Source: Solirubrobacterales bacterium (lineage in GTDB: Bacteria > Actinomycetota > Thermoleophilia > Solirubrobacterales > Solirubrobacteraceae). Taken from it: DNA of 64,000 bases. How positions within the stretch are numbered: position 1 is the first letter of the stretch; each line of letters begins with the position of its first letter. A model generated the notes under the pieces. It worked only from the letters and a program-made list of their open reading frames with translations. It was not told where the DNA came from and searched no databases. Positions 42,590 through 46,181 of this stretch are shown one piece after another. Position numbers and translations under genes: made by a program. The DNA is taken from contig DAHUYQ010000014.1 in the NCBI GenBank assembly GCA_027315115.1, forward strand, positions 1 to 64,000, in the 5' to 3' direction.

Positions 42590-45166
<2,577 letters not shown>

Positions 45167-45204: not shown

Positions 45205-45234
45205 TTGCGTCGCGTCCATATGGTCCGCTACGCT
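45205..45234 (+). promoter_or_regulatory. Promoter of the candidate structured RNA
   Basis: TTGCGT at 45205-45210 and TACGCT at 45229-45234 are separated by 18 bp. A start 5-7 nt after the -10 box would place the 5' end at the GGACC that opens the first hairpin. Confidence 0.5.
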
Positions 45235-45238
45235 GGAT

Positions 45239-45461
45239 GGACCAGAGAAAGGAGGTGGTCCTTACGTCTAGTGACAGTTCTTTCGGGACCCTGGAGGTGT
45301 CCGGCCGCTAGGTCGGATGGCTGGACCGCTTAGCGGAGTCCAACCCGGGACACCCCGAGACGGGCCGCCGGACTGGTCCCCCCGGCGCTGAGAAGGGCCC
45401 ATCTCGGCAATTCCAGTCCAAAGCAGAACGCGAAGGGCGCCTTGGTCGAAGGCGCCCTTCG
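45239..45461 (+). ncRNA. Candidate structured non-coding RNA with a hairpin-displayed anti-anti-Shine-Dalgarno loop
   Basis: The 420-bp gap between gyrA and the convergent HNH gene contains four strong helices. P1 pairs 45239-45243 with 45257-45261 around AGAGAAAGGAGGT. P2 pairs GGTGTCC 45296-45302 with GGACACC 45348-45354 and encloses CCGCTAGGTC 45305-45314 paired with GACC 45324-45327 and TAGCGG 45331-45336. P3 pairs CCGAGA-c-GGGCC 45355-45366 with GGCCC-a-TCTCGG 45396-45407. A terminator-like stem ends it. AGAAAGGAGGTGGTCC (45246-45261) can pair along its whole length with the usual actinobacterial 16S 3' tail, counting one G-U. It may be a ribosome-binding RNA or a leader for a 20-codon reading frame (45271-45333). 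I do not recognise it as a known class. Confidence 0.55.
45431..45461. terminator. Strong hairpin terminator after the candidate RNA
   Basis: CGAAGGGCGCC at 45431-45441 pairs perfectly with GGCGCCCTTCG at 45451-45461 around a 9-nt loop. The flanking U-tract is short (TCTT). It stands between the RNA element and the convergent HNH gene and could act on both strands. Confidence 0.65.
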
Positions 45462-45587: not shown

Positions 45588-46181
45588 TCAGGCCGCCTGC
45601 GGCAGATACGCCTGCCAAGCCACCGGGATCGTCGGGCTGGCGACCTGGATGAAGATCTCGTGGTGCGGGGCGCGCGGCGTGCGGCGCGGATGCATGCCGG
45701 CCTGGCGCGGCAGACGATCGCCCTTGCGGCGGTTGCAGGGCGCGCAGGAGGCGACGATGTTCTCCCAGCTCGAGCTGCCGCCCTTGGAGCGCGGGATCAC
45801 GTGGTCGACGGTCAGGTTGGAGCGCGAGCCGCAGTACTGGCAGGTCCAGCCGTCGCGGGCGAAGACCGCGCGGCGGGTGATCTTGCGCCTGTGCATGTCG
45901 CGTGGCACGTGCACGTAGCTGACCAGGCGGATCACGATCGGGCGCGTGATCGAGGAGCGCTCGGAGTGCAGCTCCCACGCTCCCTCCTCCACGACCTCCG
46001 CCTTGTCCTTGAGCAGCAGAACGACGGCGCGGCGCACGGAGCAGACGTTGATCGGCTCATAGGTCGCGTTGAGGACGAGCACCCTGCCGCTCACCCCTGT
46101 GGGGAGCGATCCAGGTCCGCGCGGCTGGTGCTCTGCTGCCGGCACGGACCCAAGTGGTCCGGATGGCACGCTGGTATCCAT
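45588..46181 (-). CDS. HNH endonuclease-family protein
   Basis: A 197-aa protein with an HNH zinc-finger nuclease domain. The metal ligands are seen in DGWTCQYCGSRSNLTVDHVIP and CAPCNRRKGDRLP, the first carrying CxxC and the DH of the HNH core. The N-terminal part RVLVLNATYEPINVCSVRRAVVLLL is typical of a widespread actinobacterial HNH family of unknown role. It is the last gene of a minus-strand series and converges on the structured element. Confidence 0.88.
   Translation of the reverse strand: MDTSVPSGPLGSVPAAEHQPRGPGSLPTGVSGRVLVLNATYEPINVCSVRRAVVLLLKDKAEVVEEGAWELHSERSSITRPIVIRLVSYVHVPRDMHRRKITRRAVFARDGWTCQYCGSRSNLTVDHVIPRSKGGSSSWENIVASCAPCNRRKGDRLPRQAGMHPRRTPRAPHHEIFIQVASPTIPVAWQAYLPQAA

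What the first reader, a model, noticed from the sequence alone, without database searches (positions are those of the whole stretch)
45205..45461. Undescribed structured RNA candidate with a ribosome-complementary hairpin loop, next to gyrA
The gap after gyrA has a promoter (TTGCGT, 18 bp, TACGCT), then four nested or sequential perfect helices ending in an 11-bp terminator-like stem. The first hairpin displays AGAGAAAGGAGGT in its loop; AGAAAGGAGGTGGTCC can pair with the whole usual actinobacterial 16S 3' tail with one G-U. The long helix P3 (45355-45366 with 45396-45407) keeps 11 pairs around one C-A mismatch. Such density of pairing over 220 nt is unlikely by chance even at this GC. It could titrate anti-SD sequence, bind ribosomes, or be the leader of a 20-codon peptide starting at GTG 45271. 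Pairing was read by eye; the 16S tail is assumed, not in the window.
Basis: partly seen in the sequence, partly recalled or inferred. Interest (0 to 1): 0.85.

Follow-up and report, generated by a model that had tools for sequence, protein, structure and literature searches.

The report
Ribosome-grabbing structured RNA hiding mini-gene
Next to a gyrase gene lies a small structured RNA, found in many Actinobacteria, that can pair with the whole free tail of the ribosome's small-subunit RNA and carries a tiny translated-looking gene inside its fold; a catalogue entry knows distant relatives of it but not what it does.

Summary
The structured RNA is real. BLASTN finds it in 53 of 61 genomes, own included. 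It is a divergent member of the uncharacterised Rfam family RF02471 (Ms_IGR-5): the window scores 24.2 bits against a cut-off of 45, but a same-family relative passes (45.5). My model R1 finds it in 155 of 396 Actinomycetota genomes, nearly always one copy. Covariation supports a fold that neither reader nor Rfam drew: a 5' helix closing a loop that holds the Shine-Dalgarno (SD), a pseudoknot to a 3' hairpin loop, and further helices. That frame, 10-15 codons, starts 5-13 nt after the SD and stops at a fixed place in the fold in 100 of 100 loci (shuffles 0.85%). The peptide drifts, and in four divergent families so does its frame over the AGGUG element. The SD can pair with 15-16 nt of the 16S tail in 173 of 173 loci. 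Published ribosome-protected reads cover the mycobacterial homologue (PMC4974804). Best reading: a stand-alone structured mini-mRNA acting through 30S capture and translation. The mechanism is inferred.

The parts
45229..45234 (+). -10 element TACGCT, 6 nt before the conserved first base
   Evidence: TANNNT within -18..-8 in 150 of 250 distinct upstream stretches vs 3 and 7 in control windows; the -35 (TTGCGT 45205-45210) is not clearly conserved
45241..45461 (+). inferred transcript, about 221 nt, from conserved A45241 to the terminator-like stem
   Evidence: R1 match 45241-45387, 134.1 bits; BLASTN match in 53 of 61 genomes, own included; transcript ends are inferred
45242..45245 (+). P1 5' strand CCAG, pairs with 45291-45294
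   Evidence: 171 of 173 loci form all four pairs, 12 distinct combinations; 97.4% of cells paired and 3 of 4 pairs with change on both sides on A2. Not in the nested minimum-energy fold of the window RNA alone
45246..45261 (+). extended Shine-Dalgarno AGAAAGGAGGUGGUCC
   Evidence: 16 contiguous pairs (G-U allowed) with the 16S tail possible in 171 of 173 loci, 15 in the other 2; own 16S tail read
45264..45311 (+). mini-ORF, 15 codons + TAG; the start-like codon here is ACG 45264 (weakest point for this genome); (M)SSDSSFGTLEVSGR
   Evidence: frame and stop conserved:
45285..45290 (+). pseudoknot 5' strand GGGACC, pairs with 45375-45380
   Evidence: 5 of 6 pairs with changes on both sides, 87.7% of cells paired, although R1 did not contain this helix; pair sets
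45291..45294 (+). P1 3' strand CUGG
45295..45299 (+). AGGUG element; 45296-45299 is the P2 5' strand and pairs with CACC 45351-45354
   Evidence: 99.7% of cells paired but 0 of 4 pairs with change on both sides, mostly invariant (helix 3)
45301..45304 (+). P2 extension CCGG, pairs with 45345-45348
   Evidence: 4 of 4 pairs with change on both sides (helix 4)
45305..45312 (+). P3 5' strand CCGCUAGG, holds the stop codon; pairs with 45329-45336
   Evidence: 8 of 8 pairs with change on both sides, 77.7% of cells paired (helix 5)
45337..45344 (+). unpaired joining strand AGUCCAAC (GAAUCCA-like in relatives)
   Evidence: sequence conservation seen in A1, not scored separately
45367..45386 (+). P4 hairpin GCCGG-loop-CCGGC; its loop GGUCCC 45375-45380 is the pseudoknot 3' strand
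   Evidence: 5 of 5 stem pairs with change on both sides, 82.6% paired (helix 6)
   Evidence: present here; long and variable in sequence in Streptomyces- and Mycobacterium-like members, weak in many others; above the shuffle mean in 104 of 146
45431..45461 (+). 11-bp terminator-like stem without a T run
   Evidence: a perfect inverted repeat of 8 bp or more lies at +150..+280 in 120 of 160 loci vs 5 after shuffling

Best explanation
It is a stand-alone structured RNA of Actinomycetota (the Ms_IGR-5 family, widened here) that is at the same time a mini-mRNA. Shown by comparison: its fold (P1, pseudoknot, P2, P3, P4), a Shine-Dalgarno able to pair with the whole free 16S tail, and a 10-15-codon open reading frame with a start-like codon 5-13 nt after GGAGG and a stop at a fixed point of the fold. 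Inferred: a 30S subunit docks by an unusually long SD duplex inside the P1 loop, and a ribosome then translates the short frame to the stop in P3, opening P1, the pseudoknot, P2 and P3 on the way. Because the peptide drifts while start, length and stop stay, I think the act of ribosome binding and translation, not the peptide, is what is selected: the RNA either holds or counts 30S subunits that can initiate by SD, or is switched between two folds by them.
For: Covariation: 25 of 31 pairs with changes on both sides, 574 such cells vs mean 181 in shuffles and 65-136 in slid controls. The pseudoknot was not part of the model used to align A2. The ORF criterion is met by 100 of 100 loci in 34 families, shuffle rate 0.85%; in the set, 173 of 173 loci have an in-frame start-like codon vs 31 and 32 in the other frames. 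Stop 9 nt after AGGTG in 172 of 173 distinct loci, the 173rd carrying three extra bases in frame; over all 218 matches TAG 179, TGA 28, TAA 10, other 1. In families f5, f8, f52 and f73 (11 loci) the frame relative to AGGUG changes but the ORF persists. 15-16-nt 16S pairing in 173 of 173. Nearly always one copy per genome (two in 2 genomes and in 4). With the SD blocked, the window RNA's minimum-energy fold holds P2 4/4, P3 8/8, P4 5/5 and the outer stem 11/12 pairs; left free it holds none of them. Published: ribosome-protected reads on MS_IGR-5 in M. abscessus and M. smegmatis (PMC4974804, section 9 read), a transcription unit in S. avermitilis (PMC8780764, passage), RNA-seq validation in S. 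lividans (PMC8079986, passages).
Against: The start-like codon in the window is ACG, a poor start. PMC4974804 itself warns that footprints can lie on non-coding RNAs. The peptide's N-terminus (S-D-S-like) recurs in distant families, which would not be needed if the product were irrelevant. Part of the frame conservation could ride on RNA constraint (AGGUG, GGGACC). P1 is in neither minimum-energy fold of the window RNA, and the P2 core GGUG/CACC hardly varies, so it says little. No downstream output of the RNA was found. 241 of 396 phylum genomes gave no hit.
Confidence: 0.5

Rival explanations
1. A trans-acting base-pairing sRNA (or protein-binding RNA) whose mini-ORF is secondary, as in dual-function sRNAs: targets pair with loops freed by unfolding.
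For: Catalogued as an sRNA; promoter position and terminator-like stem of its own; no common neighbour seen; conserved unpaired AGUCCAAC/GAAUCCA strand.
Against: Apart from the SD I saw no long conserved unpaired seed: the P3 tip and the stretch before P4 vary; no target prediction was run. The ORF is met in 100 of 100 loci, too regular for an accessory.
Confidence: 0.22
2. The micropeptide is the functional product and the RNA fold only regulates its synthesis.
For: Recurrent S-D-S...GTLEVxGR in the Thermoleophilia/Acidimicrobiia-rich set; open frame in all 100 loci.
Against: C-termini differ widely between families (GTLEVTGR, WTCEVAAR, VTVEVMRR, CVGGGS). In four divergent families the frame over the conserved AGGUG has changed. 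The conserved residues E-V are encoded by the P2 nucleotides themselves.
Confidence: 0.12
3. A pure anti-SD decoy that titrates 30S subunits without being translated.
For: 15-16-nt complementarity in 173 of 173 loci; duplex about -29 kcal/mol vs -11.9 and -14.6 for two made-up short SDs.
Against: A decoy needs neither frame, start nor stop, all of which are conserved.
Confidence: 0.1
4. A leader or attenuator controlling the downstream gene in cis.
For: Short ORF overlapping alternative pairings; the SD 3' half can also pair with GGACC (82.4% of cells).
Against: Here the next gene (HNH) is convergent beyond a terminator-like stem. Neighbours change by clade: gyrA/HNH, LigA, class IV and class III aminotransferases, GCV_T-like protein, G6PD, citrate synthase, PALP enzyme. 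The alternative pairing shows no change on both sides.
Confidence: 0.04
5. Chance folding of GC-rich spacer.
For: High GC.
Against: z -3.93; conservation; covariation.
Confidence: 0.01

Closest known systems
Rfam RF02471, Ms_IGR-5 (Actinobacteria sRNA)
   Same: Homologous. BLASTN from the window and RF02471 hit the same place in G031; RF02471 passes its cut-off in G274, same family, at the locus that the pattern found; all 25 over-cut-off RF02471 loci coincide with R1 hits, though R1 was trained partly on such loci.
   Different: The window is below the cut-off (24.2 vs 45 bits) and gave no RF02471 match under the stricter filters. The Rfam consensus printed has no pseudoknot and leaves the P1 5' strand unpaired; its 5' helix (SD with bases after AGGUG) shows 0 of 6 pairs with change on both sides. 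It is labelled sRNA; no ORF is shown.
Dual-function sRNAs (SgrS/SgrT, SR1/SR1P; named in passages of PMC11133741)
   Same: Small RNA that also carries a short ORF.
   Different: Here the ORF lies inside the conserved fold, its peptide is not conserved across families, and its SD spans the whole 16S tail.
Pseudoknotted ribosomal-protein mRNA operators with 30S entrapment (E. coli rpsO and S4 operator; recalled)
   Same: Pseudoknot next to an SD, with 30S bound on a structured mRNA.
   Different: No ribosomal-protein gene was seen beside it; neighbours vary; the RNA probably ends after about 221 nt.
infC-type weak starts monitored by IF3 (recalled)
   Same: Starts other than ATG, GTG and TTG (CTG, ATC, ACG, ATT, ATA) are common in the set (72 of 173).
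   Different: The families f27, f33, f41 and f47 use mostly or only ATG, so a weak start is not universal.

Membership tests
Rfam RF02471 (Ms_IGR-5) | score at or above the gathering score of 45 bits | tested here: not met
   window 24.2 bits, E 6.8e-4, full length 1-184
Rfam RF02471 (Ms_IGR-5) | homology through intermediates | tested here: met
   G031: window BLASTN hit 3003747-3003892 and RF02471 hit 3003720-3003892; G274, same family, 45.5 bits over cut-off at the pattern locus; 25 of 25 over-cut-off loci are R1 loci
Rfam RF02471 (Ms_IGR-5) | Rfam consensus 5' helix (SD GGUGGU with 6 nt after AGGUG) | tested here: not met
   0 of 6 pairs with change on both sides, no excess over shuffles on A2, an alignment that also holds over-cut-off members of RF02471
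Dual-function sRNA | stand-alone transcript | not testable with these tools
   promoter position conserved, terminator-like stem, changing neighbours; transcripts reported for homologues
Dual-function sRNA | conserved short ORF | tested here: met
   100 of 100 loci, 173 of 173
Dual-function sRNA | conserved base-pairing region for mRNA targets | not tested
   no target prediction was run; the SD is the only long conserved unpaired segment that I saw
cis-acting leader/attenuator | same class of gene downstream on the same strand | tested here: not met
   downstream gene convergent here; neighbours differ by clade (eight checked by Pfam)

The most novel reading that the evidence does not exclude
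A new kind of regulator: a phylum-wide, single-copy structured mini-mRNA, acting in trans, whose function is to be bound and translated by ribosomes. It captures SD-competent 30S subunits through a duplex with the entire free 16S tail, and binding exchanges an SD-blocking pairing for the conserved pseudoknotted fold. It would set the balance between SD-led and leaderless translation, the latter unusually frequent in Actinobacteria (recalled).
Probability: 0.25. Interest if true: 0.92.

Novelty: new variant of a known kind. Interest (0 to 1): 0.78.

Why it matters
An RNA kept nearly always as one copy across many actinobacterial families, with a pseudoknot, a maximal ribosome-binding site and a translated-looking ORF of unconserved product, would be one of few RNAs selected for being translated rather than for what is made. 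It turns an unexplained Rfam sRNA (Ms_IGR-5), already seen in Ribo-seq of mycobacteria and RNA-seq of Streptomyces, into a testable object with defined start, stop, pseudoknot and switch elements.

Tried and rejected
First-reader hairpin ACCA/UGGU: rejected. The GTG 45271 ORF: not the frame with the fixed stop (one search reads that frame); the GTG frame is interrupted before the fixed stop in 44 of 173 loci, so in 129 it is not. Pairing SD GGUCC with GGACC (RNAalifold's choice): compatible with 82.4% of cells but no covariation; kept only as a possible alternative state. Rfam's 5' helix: no covariation. A first automatic hairpin finder for P4 often chose the terminator stem; it was replaced by a 5'-most rule that used the trinucleotide GTC in the loop but not its pairing. 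The HNH neighbour: relatives in viral contigs, no bearing.

Rows dropped. The 173-locus set needs A[CT]N8GG[AG]GGTG[GA]TC[CT] followed by AGGTG, so it is selected for these motifs and is dominated by Thermoleophilia and Acidimicrobiia; loci not fitting (for example several Streptomyces-type L063, L066, L067, L069, L070, L074) were left out. For A1 I gave 65 of the 109 diverse rows kept (of 162 with a hairpin, of 173), leaving out redundant rows and about ten whose hairpin choice looked wrong. A2 holds 100 loci: 80 newly fetched from 79 of the 155 genomes hit, and 20 from earlier calls; L094 and L341 are the same locus. Family codes were typed from the tool tables. In A2 the P1, P2, P3 and P4 counts lean towards R1, which was trained with them; the pseudoknot was not in R1. 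The P4 and pseudoknot alignment of the most divergent families (f5, f8, f52, f73) is unsure. Weak R1 hits in family f8 with E above 1e-5 may include chance matches. The output was cut in the middle.

Full report
OBSERVATION. The window stretch 45205-45461 lies between gyrA (42590-45166 +, Pfam DNA_topoisoIV and DNA_gyraseA_C) and a convergent HNH gene (45588-46181 -). It folds better than all 200 shuffles (z -3.93). The 16S tail it assumed is real in this genome: the SSU rRNA match ends in GGATCACCTCCTTTCT. The 16-nt complement with up to two mismatches has two sites in 3.3 Mb, this RNA and the antisense of that tail; the reversed control pattern has one.

CONSERVATION. BLASTN with the 257 nt finds a match at E <= 0.001 in 53 of 61 genomes searched, own included, 28 of 31 genera. 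The window is therefore most likely a Solirubrobacteraceae genome (inference).

FAMILY. Against Rfam the window gives one notable match: RF02471 Ms_IGR-5, 24.2 bits, full length, below the 45-bit cut-off. RF02471 hits 56 of 296 genomes of the phylum at E <= 0.001 (the window's genome not among them under those stricter filters), 25 over its cut-off, and 0 of 14 control genomes. One over-cut-off genome (G274, 45.5 bits) is in the window's own family, at the locus found by my pattern; in G031 the BLASTN and RF02471 hits overlap. My covariance model R1, from 65 sequences, finds 155 of 396 phylum genomes, with two matches in two of them, and 133 of 200 class genomes, with two matches in four (some weak hits may be chance). 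All 25 over-cut-off RF02471 loci coincide with R1 loci; R1 was trained partly on such loci, so this is agreement, not an independent test. 241 of the 396 phylum genomes gave no hit: loss or divergence.

FOLD. P1, P2 with its extension, P3, P4 and a pseudoknot are supported. P1 joins the 5' CCAG (45242-45245) to CUGG (45291-45294): 171 of 173 loci form all four pairs, with 12 distinct combinations such as CCAG/CUGG, CACG/CGUG, CACA/UGUG, CCGG/CCGG, CAGG/CCUG and CGCG/CGCG; A2 adds CGAC/GUCG, CGAG/CUCG and CCAC/GUGG. The pseudoknot joins GGGACC (45285-45290) to the P4 loop GGUCCC (45375-45380) and covaries: GUGACC/GGUCAC, GCGACC/GGUCGC, AGGAC/GUCCU, UGGAC/GUCCA, CGGAC/GUCCG, CGACC/GGUCG, GGAUG/CAUCC. 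On A1 (MAFFT, no structure): 84.8% of cells paired, 20 of 31 pairs with changes on both sides, score 0.242 vs 0.046-0.105 when slid. On A2: 87.9%, 25 of 31 pairs, score 0.484 vs 0.044-0.069 when slid. A2 was fitted to R1's nested helices; the pseudoknot was not in R1 and still has 5 of 6 pairs with changes on both sides. The P2 core GGUG/CACC has none because it hardly varies.

MINI-ORF. In the motif-selected set (218 matches, 173 distinct), a stop codon stands 9 nt after AGGTG in 172 of 173; over all 218 matches it is TAG 179, TGA 28, TAA 10, other 1. The exception, L164, has three extra bases in frame and then TAG. In that frame 173 of 173 have ATG, GTG, TTG, CTG, ATT, ATC, ATA or ACG at 5-13 nt from GGAGG, against 31 and 32 in the other two frames; two (L061, L065) have a stop in the spacer shortly before their ATG, none after the start. 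Start use, counting the strongest candidate: TTG 74, CTG 39, ATG 23, ATC 19, ACG 8, GTG 4, ATT 4, ATA 2. In the phylum set 100 of 100 loci (34 families; L094 and L341 are one locus) have an ORF of 10-15 codons ending 8 or 9 nt after the element, against 0.85% in shuffles (loci are related, so this is not a probability). In families f5, f8, f52 and f73 (11 loci) the stop is 8 nt after it, so the frame over the element differs and the peptide becomes glycine-rich there; the ORF persists. This argues that start, length and stop are selected more than the peptide. In the window the start would be ACG 45264, the least certain instance.

RIBOSOME LINK. 171 of 173 loci can form 16 and 2 can form 15 contiguous pairs with the 16S tail (G-U allowed); the duplex is about -29 kcal/mol against -11.9 and -14.6 for two made-up SDs. 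Blocking the SD of the window RNA costs 4.7 kcal/mol. The blocked minimum-energy fold holds P2 4 of 4, P2 extension 2 of 4, P3 8 of 8, P4 5 of 5 and the outer stem 11 of 12 pairs; the free one, from A45241, holds none of these. P1 is in neither, and the pseudoknot cannot be drawn by this method. So occupation of the SD favours most of the conserved fold, as one computed energy comparison. In print: 'significant ribosomal reads' on MS_IGR-5 in M. abscessus and M. smegmatis, with the authors' own caution about non-coding footprints (PMC4974804, section 9 read); an S. avermitilis sRNA transcription unit (PMC8780764, passage); RNA-seq validation in S. lividans (PMC8079986, passages); M. smegmatis ncMSMEG15794c overlapping IGR-5 and longer than first reported (PMC10454040, passages). 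Searches for MS_IGR-5 (3 papers), RF02471 (1 paper), IGR-5 with M. smegmatis and small RNA (1 paper) and guessed M. tuberculosis sRNA names (0 papers) showed me no functional study, ORF or pseudoknot in the listings and passages I saw; I read none of these papers whole, and the discovery paper (recalled) did not appear.

CONTEXT. Flanking genes differ by clade: gyrA and HNH here, LigA, class IV aminotransferase, GCV_T-like protein, G6PD, class III aminotransferase, citrate synthase, PALP enzyme (ORFs by a simple GC-frame score; the window's two neighbours and eight others checked by Pfam). No common downstream gene was seen, so a cis leader is unlikely. A TANNNT at -12 or -13 of the conserved A (146 of 250) supports an own promoter, and a perfect inverted repeat follows in 120 of 160 loci vs 5 after shuffling.

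MECHANISM. Shown: fold, ORF frame, 16S complementarity. Inferred: a 30S docks in the P1 loop, initiates, and the ribosome's path to the stop in P3 opens P1, the pseudoknot, P2 and P3. GGGACC can pair either with the SD's GGUCC or with the P4 loop, so 30S docking could move it to the pseudoknot; the SD-side pairing has no covariation, so this switch is a hypothesis. The output (30S holding, a 30S sensor, or release of the 3' domain) is unknown.

VERDICT.

Noticed in passing
L030 and L021, tip of P3: Two close relatives carry extra hairpin-like insertions (roughly 20-45 nt) at the tip of P3, which is otherwise a very variable part of the RNA.
   Followed up: no
A1 columns around window 45337-45344: The joining strand between P3 and P2 (GAAUCCA-like) looks conserved although unpaired, a candidate protein or tertiary contact site.
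   Followed up: no
L265, L274, L280, L339 (family f10): In these four members a gene that looks by eye like an SDR or acyl-CoA dehydrogenase points away upstream and a DNA-ligase-like gene converges downstream; only the ligase of L265 was checked by Pfam.
   Followed up: partly
Streptomyces-type members, for example L065 and L072: The SD reads GGUGAUCC, an exact complement of the 16S tail, and its UCCGG can pair with CCGGA of the pseudoknot strand, so the alternative SD pairing may be kept by a shifted register.
   Followed up: no
window 45588-46181 (-): The convergent neighbour is an HNH endonuclease with 27-53% identical relatives in 37 viral-contig loci.
   Followed up: partly
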